Assembly: GCA_947561715.1 (NCBI GenBank)
Contig: OX387201.1
Location: 9,934,001 to 9,998,000, forward strand
Source of the DNA: Ascidia mentula
Taxonomy: Eukaryota; Chordata; Ascidiacea; Phlebobranchia; Ascidiidae
Length of the DNA: 64,000 nucleotides
Reading direction: 5' to 3'
Position 1 is the stretch's first letter, and the number at the start of each line of letters is the position of its first letter. The position numbers and the translations under genes were made by a program. The notes below the pieces were generated by a model. It saw only the letters and a program-made list of their open reading frames with translations, made no database searches and was not told where the DNA came from. Below, one piece after another: positions 1 to 27,233 of this stretch.

Positions 1-725
1 TAACGTTTTTCGTCTTTGCCGGTGACGTCACTTTCAATCAAGTGCCAAACCACTTTCCGCTCCCTAGAATTTTTTTTAAATCTCTGTATCTGTCAAGAAT
101 TGCGTGCTGAACAGCGTGAAAGTAATAAAAATTGGTAGAGATATCACGTATTCCATCAGAATGACCTCAAACAGGGCCTTTTAACGTTTTTCGTCTTTGC
201 CGGTGACGTCACTTTCAATCAAGTGCCAAACCACTTTCCGCTCCCTAGAATTTTTTTTAAATCTCTGTATCTGTCAAGAATTGCGTGCTGAACAGCGTGA
301 AAGTAATAAAAATTGGTAGAGATATCACGTATTCCATCAGAATGACCTTCAAATAGGGCCTTTTAACGTTTTGCGCTTTACCGGTGACGTCACTTTCAAT
401 CAAGTGCCAAACCACTTTCCGCTCCCTAGAATTTTTTTTAAATCTCTGTATCTGTCAAGAATTGCGTGCTAAACAGCGTGAAAGTAATAAAAATTGGTAG
501 AGATATCACGTATTCCATCAGAATGACCTTCAAACAGGGCCTTTTAACGTTTTGCGCTTTACCGGTGAAGTCACTTTCAATCAAGTGCCAAACCACTTTC
601 CGCTCCCTAGAATTTTTTTTAAATCTCAGTATTTGTCAAGAATTGCGTGCTGAACAGCGTGAAAGTAATAAAAATTGGTAGAGATATCACGTATTCCATC
701 AGAATGACCTCAAACACGAGTCTTT
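1..725 (+). repeat. Left arm: tandem 181-bp satellite, about 4 copies in view
   Basis: The same unit restarts at about 1, 182, 364 and 545, giving a period of 181-182 bp. Each unit holds the palindrome GTGACGTCAC, although the fourth reads GTGAAGTCAC. The array decays into unique sequence just after the block ATGACCTCAAACACGAG near 720. It is the reverse complement of the array at 12,388-17,996. It continues beyond the window start, so its length is unknown. Confidence 0.95.
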
Positions 726-1463
726 TTACCGTTTTTTGGTTAATGACACGAAAATCTTTGCAAATCCGAAGCTTCACAATTTGGAAGGTAAAAATCGGCT
801 TCCCCTCACCATATGGTGGAACACTAATTAGACCTGCATGACCATTTTATTGGCTGATAAGCATTTAAAAAATTTCCCGATTTTTTGAATGTGTAAAAAT
901 GACCATTAAGTTAACGCAAGTATAATAAAAAAGAAGTTTGAAATGAAATGAACAAAATTACACGATGTATATGAAAGTATGTAAAACACAAATTTATGCA
1001 TGATATTAATGCATGCATGATTGGTAAAAGTTAATCACAATGTTTGATGTAAAAAATTCGAGAAAACTCCAATGACAGTTTTGATAGTGGCACAATAAAA
1101 CAAGCATGCAGGTTTTTTTTTTCTGGCAGTTTTAATTGATCAACACAGACTTTTAAAAACTGCCAAATTTGTCATATTTGGATCAAAGATGGCATGAAAA
1201 ACTTCTGTGCCATAGGTGGTCGCTTCTGGTGACAGGATAAAGCATTGCTGTAGTTTTATGAATCTGAAAAAATAAATATACCCCAGCAGAAAACTACTCT
1301 TGAAATAAGGAAATATAACATTTGTGGCAATATTATTGTCAGTCACCCTTGTTCAGTATAATTGTACTATGCATACAAGGGCAAAAGCTAGAAATATTCT
1401 ATAAATGCAGAGATAAGGTGGTAATATCAATGATGATTTTAAAATTATTGAAAATTTTTTTCC
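726..1463. other. AT-rich non-coding spacer inside the left arm
   Basis: This stretch separates the left satellite arm from the 3' end of the transposase unit. It is AT-rich and contains only short chance reading frames. I see no repeat or domain in it. Part of it may serve as the 3' untranslated region or terminator zone of the minus-strand transposase transcript. Confidence 0.5.
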
Positions 1464-1469
1464 TTTATT
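1464..1469 (-). terminator. Candidate poly(A) signal of the transposase unit
   Basis: The plus strand reads TTTATT, which is AATAAA on the coding strand. It lies about 65 bases past the stop codon of the MULE/Ulp1/USP reading frame, a normal distance for a poly(A) signal. The surroundings are AT-rich, so a chance match is possible. Confidence 0.4.
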
Positions 1470-1531
1470 TTTTAACAAGTTACCTTGGCACATTTTTTGT
1501 ACGAACAATTACAAAACACAATGATACCATT

Positions 1532-4500
1532 TTAATGTTTACTTAAATATGTGGCAATAAAACCTAAAGATAATGATGCCTTGTTATATGACAGTTTTTC
1601 TGTAAACATCACTAACAAAGTTATACCTTCTATATACAAAACTTGTGATAAATACGTATCAACATTCAGCAAGTTACTCTCAAGTTTTTTCTGCAAACTA
1701 CTTCCATAGACAACAAATTCAGGTTTTATAACTTTACCAACAAAAGATTCACGAAAAAGTTGATCCCCAACAAAGCGCTGTCGCCACTGATGTTGACAAA
1801 TGGAATAATTTAGAAATCGAATAAGGTTTTCAAAATCAAGATTTGTTAGGTTCGTGTTGGTTAATGATAATAAAGAGTTGAACTCAATTAGTTTTTTTCT
1901 CTGGTCACTGAAAAACAAATGAACCCTGTAAAATTCTGGAAATAGATTTGCTTCACAAACAGTTTGGCGCATTATTATAGATAATGTTTTGAGTATTTGT
2001 TGGTAAGTAAAATTTACATTATTACTTAACATCGCTGGGGTTGCACTATCAATTAACTTGCCATCAATATGCTGGGTTAACTTGACATCTTTTAAAATCA
2101 GTTTTTCACATGTTTTGACTGCATCCAAGTTGCAGTGGCGACGCTTTCTGGGGATCACTTTAATTGGCATTTTAACAAATTCCTCTACAACACGGTAATA
2201 AAATATACATCCACCAGTATACAGAGCCTCATTCACTACTCCTAAAGGCACACACCTAACCACTTCATCATTAAATTCAAGCACCCATTCCTCATCAATT
2301 AACTTATAAGTAACATAATGTCCACAATTAACATTTGACCCAACATGAACAATTACAGAAACCAACTTAAGCATAAATTTATGGGAAGGGGACTGAAAAG
2401 TCAAGGTTTTGTCTGGGATTACTTTCTTCATACATTTTTTACCACCAATGTTTCTATTTAAAACTATGCAAACAACTTGAGACATCTTTTCAAATGTCAT
2501 TTCAAAAGCCATTTTACCTTTAGATTTACAAGCTTGGCAAAGACTGACTGAAGTAGTATTAAATTCAGTTTTACAATAACTACTAAGAAAACAACCATCC
2601 AACATATTTTCAAACATAGGCAAAGTGAGTGCTGATTGGTTTCTGACAAATCTTTCAATTTTACTGCAGGAGTGACATTTTTTTATTGTGACCAATTGAA
2701 ATGTGACATCTAACCCACACTTCTGAAAAACAGTACCTAAGTCAAAAACAAAAATGAACTCATTGGGATCTTGTTGCGCATTCAAAACCCAGTGTAGGTG
2801 CTTGCATATATCTTTAATTAATTGAAGATACATGACCCTGTCTAATCTGCCACATGCAACTTCACTAATCATGAAAGCTAGTCTACCAGCAACACCACCT
2901 TTGCATTCCAAACTCATAGGGACTTCTTCGCAAAGACATCTAATACCCTGTACAACAGAGTTTAACCAACAATTGTTATATTTATTTGGAAGTCCAATAA
3001 AAACAAATTCAAAACTCTTTAAACCACACCTGTAAATTGCTTCCTCACAACTATGTGAATTACACACTAAACTAAACACCATCCACATTCGAAACATCAA
3101 AGCATTAAAAGGTGAAATTTGCACTTTTAAGATCTTACATGCAATACAATCCACTGCGTAACAAACACACAGACCACAACTAGCATCATCACATTGTTTC
3201 ACAATTGAACCATTTTCAAACATGACTGCATGGCCAGTAAACATTTGCAAAGTGGGAATTAGGTTATGCTTGATCAATGCTGTCAATTCTTCATCAAAGC
3301 TCAAGAATGAGTTGTATAATACCAGTTTATTACCAGATTTGTTAAACCACAAAACAACGAAGTGACTCTTAAACAAAACAGGAATGAAAACATTTTCACA
3401 CATTGTTTTATCATCACAAAAAATACTAGCGAAAGCCTTAGGCGCATTCTTAAAACATTTACCACTTAACACTTCCATAGTCAAAGCAGTTGACAAACAT
3501 GCAAATGTTTCAGGCGATACAGCATTACACAATGTAACTGTTCTGGCTATGTAAACATCAACTACCTTATCAGTTAGCCAACCTAAAGTGGAGTCCGAAT
3601 GTGACTTAGCAGCATTTTCTGTCAAAGCGATGTAAGTTTTATTACATGGTTTCAAACAGAGTGAACACAAATCCAACCATGACAATGACTGGTGACAATG
3701 CATAATCAAAGCAGTTTCTAATATTGAAGTTTTGTTTAACTGGTCGTGGGTCCATATTTTATCAGCTATGGGTTTACAAATCCGGTGAACTACTTCTTCA
3801 GGGGGGCAGAAAATATATGGTGAGGCAAAGGGAGAAGGTTTCATGTTGTTATTGTACAAATGTTGAACTGTTTCATTTTTGTACTTAATTCGTTTTGAAG
3901 CAGTACTGGATGAATAATAGCTACTAGGATTGTTCTTACGTTTTTTAAACTTTGATTCAAAAACATGGGCCCCATTTCGTTGTAAATTTGAGATATTCGA
4001 ACTACAAGATTTGTCCCGAAATGTTTTAAATTGCATAAATGTATCACAGAATATCTTAATCAAAATCTTTAGAGAATTGTAATATTTAACAACAAAGTCA
4101 TCAATTTTTGACATTCGCTTGCCATCTAAAATGTTAGTCTTTAAATCACGAAAATGTTCTTCTATTATACCTTGAGTGTGATTGTCGCGCATTATTGTTT
4201 GGTGATCCTTATTTTTTAATGCATTACAATGGACTTTCTGTGGATGATACATTTGTGCTTGTGCATTACTCGTTGTGTCACCGTTAACATGTCGGGACAA
4301 ATCTCCCAGCATTAATTTGGAAGTTGAACATATTCTTGAAACGATTACCTCCAAAACTTTTGTACAAAAATCCGGGTTGTGATAAATGTTCTTTGAAATT
4401 TCTGGGTCAATATGTTGCTTATAAATATCAGAGATAAAAAAATCATCAAGCTTTTGCTTATATCTTTGATAAAATGGTGAGCGTTTTTCCTGTAATCTAT

Positions 4501-6212
4501 CTGTTGCTTTTGCAGTAAAAAAATAATCAGTTCTGTCCATGGCATTGTCACCATCAATGTCATGGTCAGTTTGAGTTTGAGTAATCCTTTCTTTGATATG
4601 ATTAAAATGAAATTCAACAATTGAGGAAGAAGCTTCACAATTAGTTAGAATAAAAAAACTTTCCATTACTTTATCTAGTCCAGCCAATGTGTCACAAGAA
4701 AACATTATGTTAATCCAATACAGATATGTTTCAACAATTTTCTTACTTTTGCTATGTTTATGACAAAAAATTTTGGCAGCCCTCATTGCATGGCTGTAGC
4801 AATTGTGCAATACAGTCTTGCTCAAATCTTTCTCATTAGGAATACCAGTTACAATACGATAACAACGATTGTAAAAGTCTAAGCGCAATTCTTGACAATA
4901 TGCCTTCAAAACTGCATTCCACATTGCCATGGAGCCATCAATGATGAGCAGGCTGGGCTTTTTTGCCACGCTACACAATTTTAAGCAATCAAACATAAAT
5001 TTTTCCAAAAAATGACTAATCGTACTTGAATCATGGTGCGTTGTCAAAAAAGTTGCCACAGGAAGTGGAGCACCACCCTGTTTTGGATTTCTGACAAGCA
5101 AAGTGTAAATTTGAAAATCTGAATACCTATCAATACGTCGGAGGACACTTCCCGTGGCATCAAAATAGACAATGTCCCGACAGCATAAATGATTAAATAT
5201 TTTGATCTGACTATTACAATACAATGCAACTTCTGGGGGATGAATGGCTATTGTTCGAATATAATGTTCTCCTTTCTTTAGCATTTCCAGACGGATTTCA
5301 TTTAAATTAATAAACCAAAAGTTACTAATTTTTTTACGTTCGCTTTTGATGTTGTTCAAAACAGATTGCGATGGCAAAAAAGTATGAGCCCCAAGCCAGC
5401 GTTCTTCTGGTAATAATTCGTTGTAAATTTCCCGAAATCGTTTAACAGCGGTTTTATTTTCTAATGATTTGCAAAGCTTCTTCCTCATTACTCCTGTTAC
5501 CCGCCTACATTTTTTGCAGCCAGGACAATGGCTTCGGTTACCAGACACTTTAACGCGCCCCTCAACTTTGTCAACAAACGACCAAAACGTCACCACAAAA
5601 ACAACTTCACACTTGCAATTCTTACACTTCCTATGCGCACAATACAGGTTCACCCATCCCTCTCTATAGCAATCATCATTCCGTGTAATGTTCGCAACAC
5701 TTTCTTCACTTCGTAAATAATTGTTTAAGACGTTTGGCACGCAACCATTATAAATTTGATGCACATTTTTAACTGTTAAATCCACATACAAGTTGTTTCC
5801 AAAATGATTGGCCGTTCTATTTTTTATCATGTTTTCCCATTTCTGAACTGAAATCATAAATACACCACTAACATCAACTTCAACGGAACGCCTAAATTTG
5901 GAACGAATGTCTGCACCAATTTCACTCACATCGAAAATTACATTATCATCATCATCATCATCATTATCATCATCAACAACAACAACATTCTCGCCCTCAA
6001 AAACAATACAATCCTCATCACGAACGGTAGCGCAAACAGGCGTACGAGATTTACTGTCAAACAGTTCATTGTGCTTTTGTTCCTTACCAAATGTTTCAAC
6101 AGGAGCATAAATGGGCGAAGCATACAAAATTGTTGATTTCTCGTCATCCGAACTAAAAGAATTTGGGCTGTTAGCTACAGTGTCATTTAATTGTTGCTTC
6201 CGTAAAAAACAG
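1532..6212 (-). CDS. MULE-type transposase fused to Ulp1-like protease and USP-like deubiquitinase
   Basis: This is one uninterrupted frame of about 1,550 codons. Residue numbers count from a TTG at 6,127. A run of Asp/Asn (about 50-62) is followed by a Cys-rich zinc-finger-like segment (about 165-215). The transposase core has the MULE signature: Asp in YFDATG (about 323), Asp in IIDGSMAMWN (about 395), the CxxH motif in NCYSHAM (about 442) and Glu in IIEEHFRDLK (about 655). A C48/Ulp1-like domain follows, with His in SHFVVLWFN (about 920), Asn in LYNS where Asp is usual, Gln in KQCDDASCG and the nucleophile Cys in the same motif (about 980). Last comes a USP domain: Cys box NNCWLNSVVQ (about 1053), QQDPNEF, two CxxC pairs and His box NCGHYVTY (about 1268) followed by FNDEVV. 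All expected catalytic residues are present. No ATG occurs in frame before about residue 92. A good acceptor (TTCTTTTAG) near 6,160 suggests a spliced 5' end. The frame overlaps the end of the upstream PHD unit in another frame. The role inferred is DNA transposition plus removal of SUMO or ubiquitin from host or element proteins. Confidence 0.85.
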
Positions 6213-8615
6213 TCGACACGTCATCGTCACTGCCAGAAATAGTGCTACCCACATGCGAATTGGTCCCAACTAGCGCGTCTGTATTTCCAGTTTGATTTTC
6301 GTCTGCAATGCACTCAGTTGTTTTGTCAATGGTCGATTTGTGCTCAAAACGCGGGTTTAAAAACGTTCCAGCACCAGGACAAACCAAATGAGACCGATTC
6401 CATTCATTAGCTGACAAAGTCGCGGCAACACATAGAGGATCAAAAACACAGCTCGGGTGAAACCATTTGCTACAAGTTTCGCACTCGACCATCAACCTGC
6501 CATCATACGGAGTATTACAAACGCAGTACAACTTAATTACATTAGATGATTGACATGGTTGAAAACAAACTGACAGTTCCTTTGACGATTCACAGTTGTT
6601 GTCAAGAGCAAGCTTGCATTGGTTTTGAACCATTCTCCTAAATTTGTCGCTTTTTACCCAAACCTGGTTCATTTTGAAGTAATTTTGTTTGGTAAATTTC
6701 TTTTTCATGTGTGTTAGCATTGTTCTTGCAACAACTGACGGTAAGTTTGTCGTATTAGGGTAGTTCTTAAAGCATTTTGCCAATTTGGAAATGAAGTTTG
6801 GGCAAAGCAACTTTGACTGCGTATTGTTGCCATGTTTGTTAGTACCGGAGTGATTTATAACAATCGAATCTATTTTTGTCCGATTTAATTTGCAAAACTT
6901 TAAAAGAAGTATTAGGCGTTTCGTTATATGCTTATCTTGCCAAAAAGTGTTGCTTTGCAAAAACTCCTTTCCTGTTTTGACATCAAAGTGGTTGAGGTTA
7001 TGTGTAACAAAATACTGGGCAACAGCGTTAATCTTGTCTCCTGACGTAGCAAAATGTCCACCGCCTGTCATTACCAAACGAGCAGGATAGCGCAGAATGT
7101 TGAAAAAACTAGACCGACGAAACAAACGTTTTCTGTCAATGGCTGTCGGTTTGGCGCAATTTACAGGAAACAAGGCCAACAGGTGGTTCAAAAACAACTT
7201 CAAACAATCCAAAACCTGCAGCAATCCAGAGGAACAAACCAAAAAATACAAAAAAAATGCATAAAACAAAGCCAGCAATATAAGACAGCGAAACACAAGT
7301 TTGCAAAACCGTAATACTAGCCACAAACTCGTGAGCAGCCCAAACGCGCTGGCCAAACCATGATAAAAAAATGACTGACTTGAATTGTAATTACCACCAA
7401 AAACTTCTACATCACCTTTTTTGTGGCTCAAACAAGGAACGCGTTTCCGTGGTAGTTTGTGGCTCGGTGTGGACTTGGGTGGCACTCCTACATCTCTGGC
7501 ATGTAGATTGGGGCTCGGTGTAGACTTGGGTGGCACTCCTACATCTCTGGCATGTAGATTGGGGCCCGGCGTGAACTTGGGTGGCAACCCTTTATCTCTG
7601 GCATGTAGCTTGGGGCCCGGCGTGGACTTGGGTGGCACCCCTTTATCTTTGGCATGTAGCTTGGGGCCGGGGGTGGACTTGGTTGGCACCCCTTCATCTC
7701 TGGCATGTAGATTGGGGCCCGGCGTGAACTTGGGTGGCAACCGTATATCTCTGGCATGTAGCTTGTGGCCCGGCGTGGACTTGGGTGGCACCCCTTTATC
7801 TCTGGCATGTTGCTTGAGGCCCGGCGTGGACTTGGGTGGCACCTCTTTATCTCTGGCATGTACCTTGGGGCCCGGGGTGGACTTGGGTGGCACCCCTTTA
7901 TCTTTGGCATGTAGCTTGGGGCCGGGGGTGGACTTGGGTGGCACCCGTTCATCTCTGGCATGTAGATTGGGGCCCGGCGTGAACTTGGGTGGCAACCGTA
8001 TATCTCTGGCATGTAGCTTGGGGCCCGGCGTGGACTTGGGTGGCACCCCTTTATCTCTGGCATGTTGCTTGAGGCCCGGCGTGGACTTGGGTGGCACCTC
8101 TTTATCTCTGGCATGTACCTTGGGGCCCGGGGTGGACTTGGGTGGCAACCGTATATCTCTGGCATGTAGCTTGGGGCCCGGCGTGGACTTGGGTGGCACC
8201 CGTACATCTCTGGCATGTAGCTTGGGGCCCGGCGTGGACTTGGGTGGCACCCCTTTATCTCTGGCATGTTGCTTGAGGCCCGGCGTGGACTTGGGTGGCA
8301 CCTCTTTATCTCTGGCATGTACCTTGGGGCCCGGGGTGGACTTGGGTGGCAACCGTATATCTCTGGCATGTAGCTTGGGGCCCGGCGTGGACTTGGGTGG
8401 CACCCGTACATCTCTGGCATGTAGCTTGGGGCCCGCCGTGGACTTGGGTGGCAGCCCTTCCTCTTTGGCATGTAGATTGGGGCCCGCCGTGGTTGTACGT
8501 TGTCTTTTTGTGGCATGGAAATAACAGTTGGTGACACATCCAAAACATTCGATGGTGCGAAACCGCTTTTTTTTTTCCTTTGTAGTAGCAGTAGTGGATT
8601 TTGATGTTGAAGGTT
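6187..8615 (-). CDS. PHD-finger protein with 17-residue repeats and a hydrophobic segment
   Basis: The open frame reaches 8,673 but has no ATG. A good acceptor (TTAATTGCAG) puts the likely exon start at 8,615, so a first exon upstream is implied. In order, the protein has a short basic and Cys-containing start, then twenty tandem repeats of 17 residues (type PPKSTPGPKLHARD plus three variable residues). A strongly hydrophobic stretch of about 60-70 residues, coded around 7,140-7,370, resembles two or three membrane segments. A basic region of unknown fold follows. A C4HC3 PHD finger coded around 6,400-6,545 reads CVCNTPYDGRLMVECETCSK and continues with WFHPSC and a distal Cys. PHD fingers read histone tails, so chromatin targeting of integration is a reasonable inference. 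The membrane-like part does not fit that easily. It lies directly upstream of the transposase frame on the same strand, with a short overlap of frames. I do not recognise the protein as a whole. Confidence 0.7.
7461..8505 (-). repeat. 51-bp minisatellite coding for twenty 17-residue repeats
   Basis: The unit is exactly 51 bases, so the phase is kept and all frames stay open. That explains long mirror frames on both strands. Within it there is a partial four-unit order, with variants ending ARDVRV, ARDIRL, ARDKEV and ARDKGV recurring in sequence. The unit is GC-richer than the surrounding element. Units differ by only a few bases, which points to recent expansion or conversion. Confidence 0.95.
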
Positions 8616-8775
8616 CTGCAATTAACGGAATCCTAATGAAACCATCATAGAGGATAACATAAACTGCATGCAATTTGCATTTTGTTGCATGTCGTTTTAA
8701 TTTTGCATTGATTAATTATGTATATATTTAGGCCTAAACAGGATAGCACAAATTCCAGCATTAAGCACGGTAAGG

Positions 8776-9497
8776 TCAATCCTGAATATACTCATTTATC
8801 ATTTTCAAACCTTTGGCATCGGAAACAGCAAAAATGGTATGGACATGAGCTTCCAGGCTGTCCATATAATGGCGCAGCCCGACGTCCGAGAGATGAAGGT
8901 TGTCGCTCCAGTTCTCCCGGTCGTCAGTAATATTAAAATCAAGGAAGGTCAATCCATTTTCCACAGCGAGGTTTTGAAGTACCTGGTTGACGCAATAAAC
9001 GCAACGTAGATGGAAGCCTGTTTGCGGTAGAATACCAGCTACAACAATCTGTTGAAAATGAAAAATCCACAAATTGTAATGCTGCAGAGGCCAATTACAG
9101 TATTCTTTCTACCAACCTGACATTGCGGGTACTTCTGTTGACAAACCTCAATCAACTGTTGATACTCGGCCCCGATGCTGTCGTGGTGGTGATCAGCGCG
9201 ACGGGAAGCCACGTCGTTGGTGCCAAGAGCCAGGATGATCACATCGACTGGCTCGAATCTATTCCCGTACACAATCTCCTCAGCGCCGTGTCCGATTTTC
9301 CCCCCTGGAATGGAAATCGCATTTAAAGCAAAATGCTCACTGCGAGACGATACTACCTGGGGGCAGACAATGTTCCTCCCGTTGCTATCGGTCACCAACA
9401 ACACGGAGGGAAGTTGTGAACCTTTAGCACGGAGGTAACAGGTCTGCTTTCCGCAGATCCCTGTGCTGTAGTGAACAGGTGGCGTTCTTCTTCCCAT
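8776..9497 (-). CDS. SGNH/GDSL-type hydrolase carried by the transposon, two exons
   Basis: Exons are 9,117-9,497 (ATG at 9,497) and 8,776-9,048, joined by a 68-bp intron with a CAG|GTTGGT donor and an AACAG acceptor. The spliced protein is about 217 residues, a normal size for a single SGNH domain. Block I reads LLVTDSNGRN with the nucleophile Ser. Block II is the conserved Gly in IPGGKIGHG. Block III reads ILALGTNDVA with Gly and Asn. Block V reads WSDNLHLSDVG with the catalytic Asp and His. Such enzymes hydrolyse esters; the substrate here is unknown. Related esterase domains are known in some CR1-type retrotransposons. Carriage in a MULE-type element is unexpected to me. No signal peptide is evident. 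It is on the same strand as the other two units of the element but is a separate reading unit, and an additional upstream exon cannot be excluded. Confidence 0.82.
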
Positions 9498-10806
9498 GAT
9501 GTGTAGCCTGGATCAATTCTTATGAAATGCCGAGTTGATCTTCGTCTGTTAATGCGTACTTGGACCCTTTTCTTCAGTGTAAATATTCAGCAGTAGATAT
9601 TGCAGACTTAGTAGCTGATGCTTTGTTATATCAGTTTTCTTGGAAAATAGGAAGAATTTTTAACTAAACAACAAAATGATATGCGCTGAATGCGTTATTT
9701 CTGAACGCTCCTATATTCACTGTCACAAAAGTTTACCATGTACAAACAAAATGTAGCAAAACTTGAGGTATTCATACGACCCCTTTCCAAAACATCCACT
9801 AAGCAATGTGAAATAATGCAAATATTTTTTTAAATCATCAAGTCAACTTAGCTGGTTGTTTCGTAACAATTGGAACTATGATATTGGAATGCATCACCTT
9901 GTGATTGGCTTATTCTGCGTGGCGTGACTTTCAGCAAGAGGAGGAAAGCGCCAATGAAGAGAAAGGATGGAGCAAACATAACTTTAAACACGTTTGGCCA
10001 ATTGAAGTTAATGTATACTTACAAATTATAAGTTGTTGTTGTGCAACAGTATCTTGTCCGGGTTCCTTTGCTTGAAAAATGTCATGTACTGTAGTTTTAC
10101 ATACGAACTTCGTCAAAATCCAGGGGTTGCCATTATACCGTCCATATTTTTAATTTGCTCCCTATTTGTGACTGGGCGTCCCTCATTTTTGGCTTTTTAA
10201 ACTGGTTTGGTTTTTATTCGTTAATTTTGAACCAGATGTTTGATTGATATTTTTACACCCATTTTCACAAGTATATCATTTTACCGAGGACTGATTTGTG
10301 GGATTCCTAACTTAAACCCTCAACCCTATGTCAGAATAAAACAGCGCATTTTTATTTAAGGTTGTTTATCGTTCCACTTCTATCACTGATGCTACTTGAA
10401 CAAGCAACATCAAATTGGAACAAACTGTATTGTATAATAACAAACAACAATGGACCAAAAGGTTTGGCCAAAAAGTAGTGGTCTTGTCCCAAACATAATC
10501 TACGTTTAGGATTTACACGTGAAATTACAATTTGTCTCGATGATCTTGGGCCGATGGGTCTCAATTAAAAAGGTCGACTGCTCTGCTGGCTATTTGCCTC
10601 TAAATTGTCCGTTCGCCAATGCACTAGGCTGAGATGCAGACAGATGCGTATAATTGTTTATTAATATAATGCAACCAAACAGCATAGAATAATAATGGAT
10701 TAAAATAGAATGGAATCGATTTAGAATCAAATGAAGTGGTCAGAAAGGGCAAAAGCGTTACCGATTAAACATTATAGTCTCGTGATATGAAAAAAATTTT
10801 CATCAC

Positions 10807-10884
10807 TACCGTATGTATAGTTGCTAAGTAAATACGTTTCCACACGTGCTAGACCTGTGTTTGAGCTCAGTTTTTTACGCTGCT
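10807..10884 (+). repeat. Direct repeat copy 1 (partner at 11,484-11,560)
   Basis: This copy shares a block of about 77 bases with 11,484-11,560, starting TACCGTAT and ending GTTTTTTACGCTGCT. The last 30 bases are identical and the first half is diverged. The two copies are about 680 bases apart. They may be regulatory repeats of the element or remains of a small inserted element. Confidence 0.75.
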
Positions 10885-11483
10885 TCTGTGTTTTGCATTC
10901 CGAAAAACTGATGACGCCCTTTACAAGGCCTGTCACAAACAAACTCCCCGAACGATGGAATGCGCTACAAATTTTTATTAATGCAGGTTCCAGCTTTGGC
11001 ATTGTCCCGCATGCGGCTTGGTAGGTGTCAATGCAAATTCTTGTCAACGCGATTGCGTCCCCTATTTCACCCTCAAAACAATTACCCATATGTCAAAGGC
11101 GGCTTACATCACACGATTGCAATTTAACCGAATGAAGCTACAAAGTACTCAATCCCAGATATTAGGATATATTTTTATATATGGGATGTGTCATGTGACA
11201 AAGGATTACCACATAAAATATGTCATGACAAAAACAACATATAGGCGTAAATGAGAAGAATTAAATCGATAAAGGGCATGTAAACAGAACGTCAGTTTCA
11301 CAATTTTTACTCGAAGAAATAATGTATGTTTACAGGAGGTTTTACACTCCAAAATGACGATAAAGGTGTGCATATAATGCTAATAATAGGCCTAAAAAAA
11401 GAAAAACAAACGAGAGGTAAAATCAGTGTTTCAAACCTTCCTGGATCATGAAACCAAGCTACCCTGGTAGGCTGTCCATCGAT

Positions 11484-11560
11484 TACCGTATCTATAGTTT
11501 CTGAGTTGTAAGTCGCCACACTTGCTGGACCTGTGTTTGAGCTCAGTTTTTTACGCTGCT
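11484..11560 (+). repeat. Direct repeat copy 2 (partner at 10,807-10,884)
   Basis: This is the second copy of the block described at 10,807-10,884. The shared core runs from CACAC through GACCTGTGTTTGAGCTCAG to the GCTGCT end. Confidence 0.75.
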
Positions 11561-12387
11561 GACGCCTTAACAAGGCGAAATATAAATCTAAACAACCTTC
11601 GTATTAAAAGGAAGTGAAAATAAATATGATTGCATGGACATATTCGCTTAGGGATAGGCGTGTTCATAAAAAGACAAGCAAACGTGTTTGGCATGTGTAT
11701 CAACATACTTAATACTGCGATTTAAAAATTGAATTCAAGCATACACAATACCGGATCAAGTCAACCACCATGGGCAATTAGCACAATTAATCAAGAGGTT
11801 TTGCAACGGAAGTTAATGCCGGCATAGAAATAAGTTAAGAATCAGACGATTTTGACACTAACATTCGTCAATACAAACTTCCAATCGGATAGTATTAAGT
11901 ACTTCACAGGCTATATCGATGGTTGATAAACATGGGAAACTCACCTTCATGATAAGATGTTAAGCAGAAATGTTTCATATCGCACGACAAGACAGGATCG
12001 CCACACTGCAAAAAAAAAAAAAAAAAAAGTTGGTAGCTATGGTATTTAAAGCATGAACTGGAAACATTATCGAGTTGTCTGATTACAATAGTAGATATCG
12101 TAAACTGTTATTGTTTTTCAGACATTTTTAAAATCATTTATTATGTTTACTGCAGGAACTGAAGATGCCCAAGGGGCGAAATATATATTCCTGATTATAA
12201 GCCGGGCTGATCCTATAATAAAAAGCTACTGCTGCTGCATTTTCTAGTAGATATCGCAATTGTACATTTTGCCAGGCAATTTCTGCACTTGCGAAACAGT
12301 GCATCTAGGCCAAAATCTGTATTCTCTAATCGATGTGATCAAGTATAGCTTATCTGGTGGAGCGGTGGCTGTGATTTTAAAACGATT

Positions 12388-15300
12388 TTCTGATGGAATA
12401 CGTGATATCTCTACCGATTTTTATTACTTTCACGCTGTTCAGCACGCAATTCTTGACAGATACAGAGATTTAAAAAAAATTCTAGGGAGCGGAAAGTGGT
12501 TTGGCACTTGATTGAAAGTGACGTCACCGGCAAAGACGAAAAACGTTAAAAGGCCATGTTTGAGGTCATTCTGATGGAATACGTGATATCTCTACCAATT
12601 TTTATTACTTTCACGCTGTTCAGCACGCAATGCTTGACAGATACGGAGATTTAAAATAAATTCTAGGAAGCGGAAAGTGGTTTGGCACTTGATTGAAAGT
12701 GACGTCACCGGCAAAGACGAAAAACGTTAAAAGGCCATGTTTGAGGTCATTCTGATGGAATACGTGATATCTCTACCAATTTTTATTACTTTCACGCTGT
12801 TCAGCACGCAATTCTTGACAAATACTGAGATTTAAAAAAAATTCTAGGGAGCGGAAAGTGGTTTGGCACTTGATTGAAAGTGACGTCACAGGTAAAGCGC
12901 AAAACGTTAAAAGGCCCTGTTTGAAGGTCATTCTGATGGAATACGTGATATCTCTACCAATTTTTATTACTTTCACGCTGTTCAGCACGCAATTCTTGAC
13001 AGATACAGAGATTTAAAAAAAATTCTAGGGAGCGGAAAGTGGTTTGGCACTTGATTGAAAGTGACGTCACCGGCAAAGACGAAAAACGTTAAAAGGCCCT
13101 GTTTGAGGTCATTCTGATGGAATACGTGATATCTCTACCAATTTTTATTACTTTCACGCTGTTCAGCACGCAATTCTTGACAAATACTGAGATTTAAAAA
13201 AAATTCTAGGAAGCGGAAAGTGGTTTCGCACTTGATTGAAAGTGACGTCACCGGTAAAGCGCAAAACGTTAAAAGGCCCTGTTTGAGGTCATTCTGATGG
13301 AATACGTGATATCTCTACCAATTTTTATTACTTTCACGCTGTTCAGCACGCAATTCTTGACAGATACAGAGATTTAAAAAAAATTCTAGGGAGCGGAAAG
13401 TGGTTTGGCACTTGATTGAAAGTGACGTCACCGGCAAAGACGAAAAACGTTAAAAGGCCCTGTTTGAGGTCATTCTGATGGAATACGTGATATCTCTACC
13501 AATTTTTATTACTTTCACGCTGTTCAGCACGCAATTCTTGACAAATACTGAGATTTAAAAAAAATTCTAGGAAGCGGAAAGTGGTTTCGCACTTGATTGA
13601 AAGTGACGTCACCGGTAAAGCGCAAAACGTTAAAAGGCCCTGTTTGAGGTCATTCTGATGGAATACGTGATATCTCTACCAATTTTTATTACTTTCACGC
13701 TGTTCAGCACGCAATTCTTGACAGATACAGAGATTTAAAAAAAATTCTAGGGAGCGGAAAGTGGTTTGGCACTTGATTGAAAGTGACGTCACCGGCAAAG
13801 ACGAAAAACGTTAAAAGGCCCTGTTTGAGGTCATTCTGATGGAATACGTGATATCTCTACCAATTTTTATTACTTTCACGCTGTTCAGCACGCAATTCTT
13901 GACAGATACTGAGATTTAAAAAAAATTCTAGGGAGCGGAAAGTGGTTTGGCACTTGATTGAAAGTGACGTCACCGGTAAAGCGCAAAACGTTAAAAGGCC
14001 CTGTTTGAAGGTCATTCTGATGGAATACGTGATATCTCTACCAATTTTTATTACTTTCACGCTGTTCAGCACGCAATTCTTGACAGATACAGAGATTTAA
14101 AAAAAATTCTAGGGAGCGGAAAGTGGTTTGGCACTTGATTGAAAGTGACGTCACCGGCAAAGACGAAAAACGTTAAAAGGCCCTGTTTGAGGTCATTCTG
14201 ATGGAATACGTGATATCTCTACCAATTTTTATTACTTTCACGCTGTTCAGCACGCAATTCTTGACAAATACTGAGATTTAAAAAAAATTCTAGGAAGCGG
14301 AAAGTGGTTTCGCACTTGATTGAAAGTGACGTCACCGGCAAAGCGCAAAACGTTAAAAGGCCCTGTTTGAGGTCATTCTGATGGAATACGTGATATCTCT
14401 ACCAATTTTTATTACTTTCACGCTGTTCAGCACGCAATTCTTGACAAATACTGAGATTTAAAAAAAATTCTAGGAAGCGGAAAGTGGTTTCGCACTTGAT
14501 TGAAAGTGACGTCACCGGTAAAGCGCAAAACGTTAAAAGGCTCGTGTTTGAGGTCATTCTGATGGAATACGTGATATCTCTACCAATTTTTATTACTTTC
14601 ACGCTGTTCAGCACGCAATTCTTGACAGATACTGAGATTTAAAAAAAATTCTAGGGAGCGGAAAGTGGTTTGGCACTTGATTGAAAGTGACGTCACCGGT
14701 AAAGCGCAAAACGTTAAAAGGCCCTGTTTGAAGGTCATTCTGATGGAATACGTGATATCTCTACCAATTTTTATTACTTTCACGCTGTTCAGCACGCAAT
14801 TCTTGACAGATACAGAGATTTAAAAAAAATTCTAGGGAGCGGAAAGTGGTTTGGCACTTGATTGAAAGTGACGTCACCGGCAAAGACGAAAAACGTTAAA
14901 AGGCCCTGTTTGAGGTCATTCTGATGGAATACGTGATATCTCTACCAATTTTTATTACTTTCACGCTGTTCAGCACGCAATTCTTGACAAATACTGAGAT
15001 TTAAAAAAAATTCTAGGAAGCGGAAAGTGGTTTCGCACTTGATTGAAAGTGACGTCACCGGTAAAGCGCAAAACGTTAAAAGGCCCTGTTTGAGGTCATT
15101 CTGATGGAATACGTGATATCTCTACCAATTTTTATTACTTTCACGCTGTTCAGCACGCAATTCTTGACAGATACAGAGATTTAAAAAAAATTCTAGGGAG
15201 CGGAAAGTGGTTTGGCACTTGATTGAAAGTGACGTCACCGGCAAAGACGAAAAACGTTAAAAGGCCCTGTTTGAGGTCATTCTGATGGAATACGTGATAT

Positions 15301-17996
15301 CTCTACCAATTTTTATTACTTTCACGCTGTTCAGCACGCAATTCTTGACAGATACTGAGATTTAAAAAAAATTCTAGGGAGCGGAAAGTGGTTTGGCACT
15401 TGATTGAAAGTGACGTCACCGGTAAAGCGCAAAACGTTAAAAGGCCCTGTTTGAAGGTCATTCTGATGGAATACGTGATATCTCTACCAATTTTTATTAC
15501 TTTCACGCTGTTCAGCACGCAATTCTTGACAGATACAGAGATTTAAAAAAAATTCTAGGGAGCGGAAAGTGGTTTGGCACTTGATTGAAAGTGACGTCAC
15601 CGGCAAAGACGAAAAACGTTAAAAGGCCCTGTTTGAGGTCATTCTGATGGAATACGTGATATCTCTACCAATTTTTATTACTTTCACGCTGTTCAGCACG
15701 CAATTCTTGACAAATACTGAGATTTAAAAAAAATTCTAGGAAGCGGAAAGTGGTTTCGCACTTGATTGAAAGTGACGTCACCGGTAAAGCGCAAAACGTT
15801 AAAAGGCCCTGTTTGAGGTCATTCTGATGGAATACGTGATATCTCTACCAATTTTTATTACTTTCACGCTGTTCAGCACGCAATTCTTGACAAATACTGA
15901 GATTTAAAAAAAATTCTAGGAAGCGGAAAGTGGTTTCGCACTTGATTGAAAGTGACGTCACCGGTAAAGCGCAAAACGTTAAAAGGCTCGTGTTTGAGGT
16001 CATTCTGATGGAATACGTGATATCTCTACCAATTTTTATTACTTTCACGCTGTTCAGCACGCAATTCTTGACAGATACTGAGATTTAAAAAAAATTCTAG
16101 GGAGCGGAAAGTGGTTTGGCACTTGATTGAAAGTGACGTCACCGGTAAAGCGCAAAACGTTAAAAGGCCCTGTTTGAAGGTCATTCTGATGGAATACGTG
16201 ATATCTCTACCAATTTTTATTACTTTCACGCTGTTCAGCACGCAATTCTTGACAGATACAGAGATTTAAAAAAAATTCTAGGGAGCGGAAAGTGGTTTGG
16301 CACTTGATTGAAAGTGACGTCACCGGCAAAGACGAAAAACGTTAAAAGGCCCTGTTTGAGGTCATTCTGATGGAATACGTGATATCTCTACCAATTTTTA
16401 TTACTTTCACGCTGTTCAGCACGCAATTCTTGACAAATACTGAGATTTAAAAAAAATTCTAGGAAGCGGAAAGTGGTTTCGCACTTGATTGAAAGTGACG
16501 TCACCGGTAAAGCGCAAAACGTTAAAAGGCCCTGTTTGAGGTCATTCTGATGGAATACGTGATATCTCTACCAATTTTTATTACTTTCACGCTGTTCAGC
16601 ACGCAATTCTTGACAGATACAGAGATTTAAAAAAAATTCTAGGGAGCGGAAAGTGGTTTGGCACTTGATTGAAAGTGACGTCACCGGCAAAGACGAAAAA
16701 CGTTAAAAGGCCCTGTTTGAGGTCATTCTGATGGAATACGTGATATCTCTACCAATTTTTATTACTTTCACGCTGTTCAGCACGCAATTCTTGACAGATA
16801 CTGAGATTTAAAAAAAATTCTAGGGAGCGGAAAGTGGTTTGGCACTTGATTGAAAGTGACGTCACCGGTAAAGCGCAAAACGTTAAAAGGCCCTGTTTGA
16901 AGGTCATTCTGATGGAATACGTGATATCTCTACCAATTTTTATTACTTTCACGCTGTTCAGCACGCAATTCTTGACAGATACAGAGATTTAAAAAAAATT
17001 CTAGGGAGCGGAAAGTGGTTTGGCACTTGATTGAAAGTGACGTCACCGGCAAAGACGAAAAACGTTAAAAGGCCCTGTTTGAGGTCATTCTGATGGAATA
17101 CGTGATATCTCTACCAATTTTTATTACTTTCACGCTGTTCAGCACGCAATTCTTGACAAATACTGAGATTTAAAAAAAATTCTAGGAAGCGGAAAGTGGT
17201 TTCGCACTTGATTGAAAGTGACGTCACCGGTAAAGCGCAAAACGTTAAAAGGCCCTGTTTGAGGTCATTCTGATGGAATACGTGATATCTCTACCAATTT
17301 TTATTACTTTCACGCTGTTCAGCACGCAATTCTTGACAAATACTGAGATTTAAAAAAAATTCTAGGAAGCGGAAAGTGGTTTCGCACTTGATTGAAAGTG
17401 ACGTCACCGGTAAAGCGCAAAACGTTAAAAGGCTCGTGTTTGAGGTCATTCTGATGGAATACGTGATATCTCTACCAATTTTTATTACTTTCACGCTGTT
17501 TAGCACGCAATTCTTGACAGATACTGAGATTTAAAAAAAATTCTAGGGAGCGGAAAGTGGTTTGGCACTTGATTGAAAGTGACGTCACCGGTAAAGCGAA
17601 AATCGTAAAAAGGCCCTGTTTGAGGTCATTCTGATGGAATACGTGATATCTCTACCAATTTTTATTACTTTCACGCTGTTCAGCACGCAATTCTTGACAG
17701 ATACAGAGATTTAAAAAAAATTCTAGGAAGCGGAAAGTGGTTTCGCACTTGATTGAAAGTGACGTCACCGGTAATGCGCAAAACGTTAAAAGGCCCTGTT
17801 TGAGGTCACTCTGATGGAATACGTGATATCTCTACCGATTTTTATTACTTTCACGCTGTTCAGCACGCAATTCTTGACAGATACTGAGATTTGAAAAAAA
17901 TTCTAGGGAGCGGAAAGTGGTTTGGCACTTGATTGAAAGTGACGTCACCGGTATAGCGAAAATCGTAAAAAGGCCCGTGTTTGAGGTCATTGTGAT
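12388..17996 (-). repeat. Right arm: inverted 181-bp satellite, about 31 copies
   Basis: The unit runs from TTCTGATGGAATACGTGATA through a T-rich segment, the AATTCTTGACA block and GTGACGTCAC to AACGTTAAAAGGCC. It is the reverse complement of the left-edge array. Copies differ at a few diagnostic sites, such as CAAAGACG against TAAAGCGC, ACAGAG against ACTGAG, and GGGAGC against GGAAGC. Outer units (17,440-17,996) are more diverged, as are the first ones. Short reading frames of 71 codons recur because of the repeat and are not genes. Confidence 0.97.
13095..17432 (-). repeat. Higher-order repeat: three copies of a 1,446-bp, 8-unit block
   Basis: Diagnostic variants recur every 1,446 bases. 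The AAAAGGCTCGTG variant is at about 14,541, 15,987 and 17,433. The unit type with an extra base (TTTGAAGGTC) recurs at the same spacing. Eight units of 181 bases, with one or two single-base insertions, make 1,446. Copies look nearly identical over 4.3 kb, so the block was amplified recently. Confidence 0.92.
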
Positions 17997-18635
17997 AGAA
18001 AATCTGGAACTTTTGCTGTGGTATTGATGCGATATAGTTGCCTAGTTGATTATTTTTCAAAATTATGTTTCATACTATGACATAAACCCAGAAGAAATTC
18101 ATTTGTGTAGGTTTAACCTTATCCTGAAATGCTGCCTAATGATGCGGAACTGATTTTTCGAAAAATTAAATTTGGATTCTGCCAGAATGACAATAGTGCC
18201 AACTTGCTATGTGTGTTCCAGTTCAACGATTATTTGATTGACACGTGAGATTATAGAAATTATACAATCATAGCATACTCTTGTTCAATGATTAAAAGCA
18301 GATAGTTTTATCAATACTATGTTGGAGCTGAGAGTAAAACTCAAAATTGTGAAAGAACAGAAAATGCAGTTGTGCTAATCTGCGCTAAACGGTATTTGAA
18401 TTTATGATTTTACTGAACGAGGTTGGAAATCGATCTGGAACGTAAAATAAGGACGACTGGAAATATAACATGTTGTTCATTTTGTTCAAGCTTCTTGACC
18501 ACCAAGCTGCATAGCATTTCCGTTTTGTTTGTATAAGTTCATGTAAACACGACCACTTTTGCACGTATAGAAAATTAAATTTATTACAAAATCACACGAA
18601 GGGCCCAAAATTGATAACGATACATCACAAAATTA
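17997..18635. other. Unique AT-rich flank between satellite arm and next gene
   Basis: This is AT-rich sequence with no open frame of note and no repeat that I can see. It would contain the outer right boundary of the transposon and the 3' flank of the membrane-protein gene. Confidence 0.4.
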
Positions 18636-25488: not shown

Positions 25489-27012
25489 ATGGCTGGAGTT
25501 GACATCTTCCAATTCTTGCTTTTGTCCACAATATTGATGGGATTGGTTACAGGTATGAACATAAAAATAATTTCCTTAAATCCAGTATAAGATTTTTAAC
25601 TTTTTATTGTGTCGCAATTGACAACAACACTAAATTACCACTGCCATAATTGACCAACTGATCTGGGCTGTATCGTCTTTTTGATGACTTAATTGTTGTA
25701 CACATTTGTACTCATGCTATTTTGTTTTTGACATTATTTGGTATTTGTTGACCATCATGGTTAAACAAAAATTTCAAAATCATATTTACATGCACATTTT
25801 CATTTTAGTTTAGACGTATTTTTAAAGTTTGTTGGATTTATAGCCATATAATAATCAGTAACTACATTATTGCCAATAAAACCTGAGGACAATAGTAAGC
25901 TTAATACAATAACAACCAACATATTAGATCAATCACTTTTTATTGTTTTAATACGGAAGCAATATATAACATCTATTCCATGATGCAGGTCAGTGTTCGC
26001 AACCCAAGTATTTTAGTAAATGCGCCTCGCCGTGCGAACATACCTGTGAAAGTCGGCCAGAAGTTTGCATCGCGTTGTGCGTCGAAGACTGCGTCTGCCC
26101 ACGAAAACTTGTGAGACAAAATGACACCTGCGTTTTGCCCTCCAACTGCCCAGGTGATATTCACAAAATCAGCGACTTTTTGTCGTGATTCTCCTGATTG
26201 TGTTCCTGTAGGGGCCGATTGTCCTTCAGGTGTGACGAGGTTCAGTTGTTTGGTTGCTCCTTGCTCAACTGCAAGATGTCCTCGACATACCGACGCGATT
26301 TGCCTTGACGATTACTGCGGTGGATGCAACGCGAGGTTTTTCAAGAATGCCGAAGAAGTTACAAATGACTGTAAGTCACGAGGCAATAGTTTCGAGCCCA
26401 AATAATCATTTGTACAATTATTTTGATGTGGTCTTTAGGCAATTGTACTGCGCCAAAGGAATTTCAAACTTGCGGATCAGCTTGTCCAGCAACTTGCGAC
26501 GAACCCAACCCTATCTGCACAGAACAGTGCGTAGAGAGATGTGGATGTCCTGACGGGATGGTGGAAATAAGTTCCACTAATTCGACATGCATTCCTGCTT
26601 CTGAATGCGCTGGTATGTTTTAATACATACCTTGCCACATTTGAAGTTGCTACACATGTGTTCTGTTGTTCAGATAACTGCGAGGCGCCCAGAAATTTTT
26701 CAACTTGTGCGTCCGCTTGTCCGCCAAACTGCGACGACTTGGAGCGACCTTGTGTCAAGAAATGCGTGCAAAAGTGCGCGTGTCCACAAGGCATGGTCGA
26801 AGTAAGCTCCACGAATAACACCTGCATCACACAGGAATCGTGTCCAGGTGCATTCAAATTGAATAAATATAACCTAAAACATATAAAAGCTTTGACTAAA
26901 CAAAATGTTTTCAGGGTCGAACCAAACTACAGAAGTTATCGTGGGTGTTGGTGTCGGAGTGGTTGCAGCCTTGACTGTGCTTGCTGCTGTTTGCTTAAAA
27001 ATGAGATCGTAA
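25489..27012 (+). CDS. Membrane-anchored protein with three TIL domains (paralogue 1)
   Basis: Six exons: 25,489-25,552, 25,989-26,153, 26,212-26,370, 26,439-26,612, 26,674-26,847 and 26,915-27,012. They give 277 residues. All introns are in phase 1. Exon 1 is a signal peptide (MAGVDIFQFLLLSTILMGLV). Exons 2, 4 and 5 each code one TIL domain with ten Cys, for example CSQPKYFSKCASPCEHTC at the start of the first. Exon 3 codes a different Cys-rich module with the motif RCPRHTDAICLDDYCGGC. Exon 6 codes a membrane segment (VIVGVGVGVVAALTVLAAVC) ending KMRS. TIL domains are often serine-protease inhibitors but also occur in mucins and adhesion proteins. Reactive-site activity cannot be told from sequence. 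Equal intron phases allow exon shuffling, and the neighbouring paralogues show it. The predicted product is a cell-surface protein. Confidence 0.88.
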
Positions 27013-27233
27013 ATTTTATGCCCTTACAGTATTGCAAACTTGCTGCTTTCTCACGATATATGCATCAAATAAAAACAAATGTTCCCATCTCATTGCTCTA
27101 TACTCGACAAACACTCCATGAAATCAGCTGCACTGATGAGACCTTTTAGGTCGAAACAGTGGCCATCTGTCTGCAGCTTATACACACTCTATGAAAACAT
27201 TTGCCATGCTTTGTTTGTAAAAACTTGCTTATG

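What the first reader, a model, noticed from the sequence alone, without database searches (positions are those of the whole stretch)
1..17996. Very large mobile element with inverted arms made of satellite DNA
The same 181-bp satellite stands in opposite orientation on both sides of an 11.7-kb block that encodes a MULE-type transposase. Both arrays end at nearly the same unit phase on the inner side. Tandem-repeat arms plus a MULE transposase match Foldback/NOF in design, but the size (over 18 kb), the cargo and the satellite organisation go well beyond what I know of that group.
Basis: partly seen in the sequence, partly recalled or inferred. Interest (0 to 1): 0.88.

Follow-up and report, generated by a model that had tools for sequence, protein, structure and literature searches.

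The report
Giant sea-squirt transposon with satellite arms
This is a 22-kilobase jumping gene, most likely of a sea squirt, from a family that moved recently; its two ends are long mirror-image arrays of satellite DNA, and a related family in the same genome has the same design built from an unrelated satellite, which shows one way that satellite DNA is made and spread.

Summary
Confirmed and extended. The block with its two inverted 181-bp arrays is a 22,478-bp transposon that starts 4.3 kb left of the window and ends at window 18197. Its tips lie beyond the arrays, in terminal domains (130-210 bp). Perfect 8-bp target duplications flank 6 of 6 copies whose two ends were read (A-F); a gap-free empty site, 97% identical, exists for copy D, none was found for A, B, C, E. 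Two copies on different contigs are identical over 6,700 bp compared, yet their right-arm spans differ by 364 bp, two unit lengths: recent movement. Arms have 6 to 31 units and seem to exchange sequence. A second family (46% identical transposase) has the same inverted-array plan at 5 of 5 loci, with a satellite of unrelated sequence. The protein frame (up to 2,596 codons, open in other copies, interrupted here) has a coding minisatellite, PHD finger, DDE-like core (by eye only), Ulp1-like and USP peptidases; an SGNH-type hydrolase lies upstream. No MULE profile matches; the closest described kind is Rehavkus, not FB/NOF. New variant of a known kind: larger, in a chordate, with protease domains, 8-bp duplications, and arm satellites that differ between related families.

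The parts
1..736 (-). Left (gene 3'-side) satellite arm, inner 4 units; the array continues left of the window to C69:9929849 (27 units), then a shortened outer domain (about 130 bp; about 200 in B-D) and the tip ACTATTGTC at C69:9929720, then the 8-bp duplication GCCAACTT
1532..6127 (-). Transposase frame P0001 (1531 aa; stop-to-stop 1535-6220): DDE-like core, Ulp1-like peptidase, USP peptidase, C-terminal region
4016..5809 (-). DDE-like core: candidate D323, D397, C443-x2-H446, E656 of P0001 (assigned by eye; invariant in 6 aligned copies that are 88-99% identical to the first)
   Evidence: dN/dS 0.16-0.17 between three lineages
3086..3409 (-). Ulp1-like (C48) peptidase segment, weak profile match
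   Evidence: E 0.028 here; best E 0.0016 in copy E; all under the curated cut-off
2246..2998 (-). USP-type ubiquitin hydrolase (UCH) domain; Cys-box and His-box motifs located by eye
6187..8673 (-). N-terminal part of the same protein (P0002, 828 aa): 17-aa coding repeats, hydrophobic stretch, PHD finger; in copies B, C, D, E, G it is one frame with the transposase, in the window copy the frame is interrupted near 6187-6220 (cause not determined)
7452..8492 (-). 51-bp coding minisatellite (about 20 copies)
6433..6525 (-). PHD finger
   Evidence: dN/dS 0.09-0.14
8779..9497 (-). SGNH/GDSL-type hydrolase, apparently two exons (9039-9497 and within 8779-9108), upstream of the transposase; profile matches under the curated cut-off
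   Evidence: E 3.6e-05; E 0.021
9850..10102 (.). Non-coding block 92% identical between copies A and E (main coding stretch 88%): candidate promoter
12388..17988 (+). Right (gene 5'-side) satellite arm, 31 units; units 0-27 from the inside are nearer to 3'-side arms of other copies, the outer three nearer to 5'-side arms
17990..18197 (+). Right outer terminal domain, ending in ...GACAATAGT; left and right outer 195 bp are 77.9-81.7% identical in A-E, gaps not counted
18198..18205 (.). 8-bp target duplication GCCAACTT (right copy)

Best explanation
It is a cut-and-paste DNA transposon family with transposase-coding copies of 15.0-22.5 kb, most likely in the sea squirt Ascidia mentula. A large transposase (PHD finger, DDE-like core, two peptidase domains) acts on the conserved tips and makes 8-bp target duplications (insertion shown; catalysis inferred). 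The satellite arms are part of the element. They lie inside the duplications, change length between otherwise identical copies, and the two arms seem to exchange sequence in inverted orientation (traces seen; gene conversion through fold-back pairing inferred). Each unit carries a motif like the tip (GTCATTCTGnnnGAAT), so the arms may be arrays of extra transposase-binding sites (suggestive only). The peptidases probably strip ubiquitin or SUMO marks to protect the transposase or loosen silencing (inferred from domain type). The plan is shared by a related family whose satellite sequence is unrelated. The window copy has an interrupted frame and probably moves only with help from intact copies.
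For: Inverted arrays around the gene in the five whole copies A-E and on both sides in F and G. Perfect 8-bp duplications in 6 of 6 copies with both ends read (A-F). Related empty site for copy D: 330 bp aligned without gap, the target present once with one difference. E and G identical over 6,700 of 6,700 bp compared, with different right flanks, and gene-to-tip spans of 6,191 and 5,827 bp, a difference of 364 = 2 x 182. dN/dS below 1 in all eight regions and three pairs compared, lowest in PHD and core (0.09-0.17). Arm exchange: 28 of 31 units of arm AR lie nearer to 3' arms of other copies, the outer 3 nearer to 5' arms; 2 of 11 units of CL show the reverse. Second family: 5 of 5 loci bracketed by inverted arrays of an unrelated satellite.
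Against: No transposase profile matches the core, and both structure predictions failed (mean pLDDT 31 and 30), so the DDE assignment rests on motifs read by eye. Arm types are not clean: 3 of 7 units of DR and 1 of 9 of BL are nearer to 3' arms too, several are ties, and mean differences between arm types are only about 1%. Five of eight gene-less pairs of ends lack a duplication. No empty site was found for A, B, C or E. Ends of the second family were not read. The Ulp1-like and SGNH matches stay under their cut-offs. No expression or activity data.
Confidence: 0.87

Rival explanations
1. An ordinary dispersed satellite into which, or beside which, a transposon happened to insert, so that arms and block are unrelated.
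For: 181-bp units also occur at loci without a P0001 match, and 3 of 22 clusters counted had no terminal domain listed near them.
Against: Arms are inverted at all five whole copies and lie inside the target duplications. Arm divergence tracks transposase divergence in three lineages (mean unit identity 93.5-95.8% in A-D, 85% in E; 77-82% in H1/H2).
Confidence: 0.02
2. A true member of the MULE superfamily close to FB/NOF.
For: DDE-like order with C-x2-H; D-D spacing of 73 residues within the 60-76 reported for arthropod MULEs (PMC13359780 passage); 8-bp duplication within the 8-11 bp given for MULEs (PMC6446971 passage).
Against: PF10551 gives 49 matches in this genome (48 over cut-off), none in a P0001 locus. 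No FLYWCH or SWIM match. D-E spacing of 258 exceeds the 120-214 reported. PHD finger and satellite arms point to Rehavkus, used as outgroup of MULEs.
Confidence: 0.2
3. A new transposase superfamily, unrelated to MULE or Rehavkus at family level, that converged on the foldback design.
For: No family match for the core; long D-E distance; fused peptidases. Foldback designs have arisen with different transposases (PMC3169594 passage).
Against: PHD finger, satellite arms and a minisatellite are all reported for Rehavkus.
Confidence: 0.25

Closest known systems
Rehavkus DNA transposons (Rehavkus-1_TC of Tribolium; Repbase)
   Same: PHD finger in the transposase, minisatellite, inverted termini made of short satellite arrays (164-bp monomer, mostly five and eight copies); passages of PMC6446971 and PMC10218199 seen
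   Different: 9.5 kb against 15.0-22.5 kb; duplication 9 bp against 8 bp; hosts given as arthropods and annelids against a chordate; USP, Ulp1-like and SGNH parts are not mentioned in the passages seen. No sequence comparison was possible.
Foldback elements of the Mutator group (FB/NOF, Tetris, Tm1)
   Same: Composite inverted repeats with an outer domain and a variable number of tandem units; duplications of 8-10 bp; gene-less derivatives (PMC4079207 and PMC3169594 passages)
   Different: Tm1 units are about 14 bp and its transposase element is 2.6 kb; Tetris has about 220-bp units but no transposase was found; no protease parts in the passages seen. FB/NOF itself is known to me from recall only.
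Galileo (P-superfamily foldback of Drosophila)
   Same: Repeat-bearing inverted ends; the repeats hold extra transposase binding sites (stated in the PMC4079207 passage)
   Different: P-element transposase with THAP domain; no such profile match here
MULEs of chordates
   Same: One MULE sequence reported from the sea squirt Ciona savignyi (PMC6446971 passage)
   Different: Its structure was not seen; the review says that evidence for chordate MULEs is limited, and lists Rehavkus only from arthropods and annelids

Membership tests
Rehavkus | PHD finger in the transposase protein | tested here: met
   PF00628 E 1.4e-05; a match to the PHD-bearing region lies beside the transposase match at 27 of the 29 loci that I count
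Rehavkus | Satellite/minisatellite arrays in the inverted termini | tested here: met
Rehavkus | 9-bp target duplication | tested here: not met
   8 bp in 6 of 6 copies with both ends read
Rehavkus | Catalytic core related to known Rehavkus transposases | not testable with these tools
   No tool used here gave Rehavkus sequences; the paper with the core alignment is not held
MULE superfamily | Match to the MULE transposase profile PF10551 | tested here: not met
   Not among hits at E up to 1 (P0001) or up to 10 (pieces and other copies; HMMER filters drop most weak hits); 49 other matches in the genome, none in this family
MULE superfamily | DDE triad in an RNase-H-like core | tested here: inconclusive
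   Motif order fits by eye; structure models failed
MULE superfamily | 8-11 bp target duplication | tested here: met
   8 bp; range from PMC6446971
Foldback (structural class) | Long inverted repeats with internal tandem units of variable number | tested here: met
   6 to 31 units per arm in A-E
FB/NOF | NOF-type transposase | not testable with these tools
   No NOF sequence was available

The most novel reading that the evidence does not exclude
A chordate transposon superfamily that makes and renews its own satellite DNA. The inverted-array architecture is kept by selection because the units are transposase-binding sites, both arms are kept alike by fold-back conversion, and whole satellites are replaced between related lineages, so these elements seed new satellite families into the genome; its transposase is a separate superfamily with built-in deubiquitinase and deSUMOylase.
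Probability: 0.3. Interest if true: 0.85.

Novelty: new variant of a known kind. Interest (0 to 1): 0.62.

Why it matters
It gives a natural experiment on how satellite DNA arises and spreads inside mobile elements: copies identical in the compared 6.7 kb with different array lengths, traces of exchange between opposite arms, and related families whose arms have the same plan but unrelated sequence. It also shows a DNA transposon above 20 kb that moved recently, most likely in a chordate, with ubiquitin- and SUMO-protease-like domains in the same protein as its transposase; complete arthropod MULEs are given as 1.4-10.0 kb (abstract of PMC13359780 in the listing).

Tried and rejected
Chance or assembly coincidence: rejected, since the arms are inverted around the gene at all five whole copies. 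Satellite as independent centromeric DNA: the listed clusters are dispersed, and the longest array measured in A-E is the window's own 5.6 kb. One search lists only part of 402 matches, so this is not a full census.

Relatives in viral contigs: none found. Structure prediction of the core and of the peptidase region from six close sequences: both unusable, so no fold search was run. Profile of the core against solved structures: one hit, E 0.25, to a scorpion toxin, taken as chance; the Ulp1-like piece: two hits at E 0.34 and 1.9, taken as chance; weak hits to unrelated Pfam families beside it were also taken as chance. Similarity between tip and satellite unit: 13 of 16 bases, reached by 49 of 2000 shuffles, so only suggestive; the motif is one of the two longest invariant runs across the unit consensus of three lineages, and the pattern has 35 matches in the window, 34 in the arrays and one at the right tip. 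The motif stands in opposite orientation at the tip and in the neighbouring array.

The nearest-unit result for E (42 of 42 units nearest to E's opposite arm) is weak as evidence of exchange, since E was the only copy of its subfamily in that comparison. The blastn meant to show how the window copy's frame is interrupted printed nothing.

Paper searches. Judged by their listings, none is about an ascidian element of this kind; the library is open-access only. PMC6431247 was seen in passages.
Full report
What is there. TRF finds the same 181-bp unit at 1-736 and 12388-18000, 96% matches. A unit search shows that the two arrays are in opposite orientation and that the left one runs on outside the window to C69:9929849 (27 units; right 31). 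The window is C69:9934001-9998000 of a 195.8-Mb, 79-contig genome. So the host is most likely that sea squirt and the window lies on its chromosome 5. This is an inference from lengths.

Other copies. P0001, the 1531-aa frame, has 34 matches in the genome, which I group into 29 loci. I examined five whole copies: A (window), B C67:6.09 Mb, C C67:9.22 Mb, D C70:0.92 Mb and E C2:8.73 Mb; the ends of F (C2:15.1 Mb); and parts of G (C73:9.08 Mb). In A-E the gene is bracketed by inverted arrays with 27/31, 9/15, 11/6, 20/7 and 15/29 units on left/right. F and G have arrays of opposite strand on the two sides. Relatives H1 and H2 (C71:5.41 Mb, C2:14.35 Mb; protein 80% identical) have the array on the gene's 3' side at 77-82% unit identity; their other side was not read.

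Ends and insertion. Beyond each array lies a terminal domain of about 200 bp (about 130 bp at the left of A) ending in ACTATTGTCATTCTGGCAGAATCC (two differences at the right tip of E). Immediately outside are perfect 8-bp duplications in 6 of 6: A GCCAACTT, B GACGAGGA, C ATAAATGC, D TAAAAAGC, E ATGTGAAT and F CTTAAAAG (read). Element lengths are 22,478, 17,334, 15,042, 16,487 and 21,873 bp for A-E. Joined flanks of A-E were searched in the genome (40 of 225 candidates scored). For D one place, C70:2350055-2350354, spans the junction over all 300 bp at 97%; the 330-bp alignment is gap-free and holds the target once, with one difference in the 8 bases. 29 further listed places span the D junction at 75-86%, since D sits in a dispersed repeat. 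For A, B, C and E no listed place spans the junction, so no empty site was found for those four.

Recent movement. E and G are identical over the 6,700 of 6,700 bp compared but have different right flanks. From gene end to tip they measure 6,191 and 5,827 bp, a difference of 364 bp, two 182-bp units; G's units were not counted one by one, and its left end was not read. H1 and H2 are identical at 6,978 of 7,000 positions.

Short derivatives. With the right terminal domain as query (41 matches; 40 of 112 candidates scored), eight pairs of opposite ends 0.4-7.3 kb apart have no P0001 match between them. Two of eight have perfect duplications (AGTATATT, GTAGTAAC), one has 7 of 8 bases, five have none (read). 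The five without may be recombinants between elements, as suggested for a Tm1 copy (PMC3169594 passage), or carry longer ends than I assumed.

Arms evolve together. Units of the two arms of E differ by 4.5% on average, as much as within an arm (4.4 and 3.8%), against 12.4-15.7% from A-D. In B, C and D the 5'-side arms of different copies resemble each other (3.6-4.6%) slightly more than their own 3'-side arm (4.7-5.1%); in A both arms are alike (2.7%). Unit by unit, 28 of 31 units of A's right arm are closer to 3' arms of other copies, and the outermost three are closer to 5' arms; 2 of 11 units of C's left arm show the reverse. Against a clean picture: 3 of 7 units of D's and 1 of 9 of B's 5'-side arm are closer to 3' arms, and many units tie. 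The A result reads as sequence transfer between opposite arms, most simply conversion in a folded-back state. A's right arm also shows a repeating set of unit types of about eight units, so the 28 units are not independent events.

A second family with another satellite. The 3' flank of a 46% relative (C69:8.19 Mb, L057) carries a different repeat, with no blastn match to the 181-bp unit at E 10. Mapped genome-wide, this satellite brackets in inverted orientation 5 of 5 loci with this transposase type: C69:8.19, C70:19.45, C70:20.91 and C1:2.12 Mb (46% identical to P0001) and C67:1.62 Mb (matched in two pieces, 58% and 36%). It also forms inverted pairs without a P0001 match, for example C1:10.49 and C69:13.06 Mb.

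Coding content. In B, C, D, E and G one stop-to-stop frame of 2,323-2,596 residues has no stop inside; in the window copy the frame is interrupted between about 6187 and 6220. Order: 17-aa coding repeats, a hydrophobic stretch, PHD finger (PF00628, E 1.4e-05), DDE-like core, Ulp1-like segment (PF02902, best E 0.0016 in copy E, under cut-off), USP domain (PF00443, E 7.7e-08). dN/dS between three lineages is 0.09-0.14 (PHD), 0.16-0.17 (core), 0.29-0.42 (Ulp1-like), 0.26-0.38 (USP); the other regions give 0.25-0.71. An SGNH-type protein lies upstream on the same strand in 9 of 9 copies A-H2 (with a stop inside the match in E and G), within 10 kb at 9 of the 15 other relatives, and at 0 of 5 loci of the second-satellite family. 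The PHD-bearing region lies beside the transposase match at 27 of 29 loci, not at C72:12.11 and C67:3.71 Mb.

Which transposase. No transposase profile in Pfam or NCBIfam matches the core, and PF10551 gives 49 other matches but none in this family. By eye, D323, D397, C443-x2-H446 and E656 have the order known for MULE-like enzymes (recalled). The D-D spacing of 73 lies within the 60-76 given for most arthropod MULE families; the D-E spacing of 258 is longer than the 120-214 given there (PMC13359780 passages). The best structural fit in print is Rehavkus (passages). The MULE review reports one chordate MULE, from Ciona savignyi (passage).

Mechanism. Shown: insertion with 8-bp duplication, arms inside the element, arm-length difference between otherwise identical stretches, dN/dS below 1. 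Inferred: DDE cleavage at the tips, inter-arm transfer by fold-back pairing, unit motif as binding site, peptidases acting on ubiquitin or SUMO marks. That two families with unrelated satellites keep the same array plan argues that the array itself is useful or self-generating; which of the two is open.

Noticed in passing
window 26658-27149: Plus-strand frame with a trypsin-inhibitor-like (TIL) domain, E 1.3e-07; outside the element.
   Followed up: no
G000:C73:310938-311528 (L050): A 0.4-kb miniature element with both tips and what looks like a single satellite unit between them, 7 of 8 bases of a duplication.
   Followed up: partly
window 9850-10102: Non-coding block more conserved between copies A and E (92%) than the main coding stretch (88%); candidate promoter.
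   Followed up: no
L044, L045, L049: Flanks of two gene-less elements share a stretch like ACCATAGTGTACT just outside the assumed tips: either longer ends or a common target.
   Followed up: no
G000:C2:15117319-15121472: Gap in the P0001 match of copy F that holds another, distant SGNH match (32%): probably a nested insertion.
   Followed up: no
G000:C71:810674-841404: Arrays of the second satellite in opposite orientation about 20 kb apart with no P0001 match between: possibly a larger or composite element.
   Followed up: no
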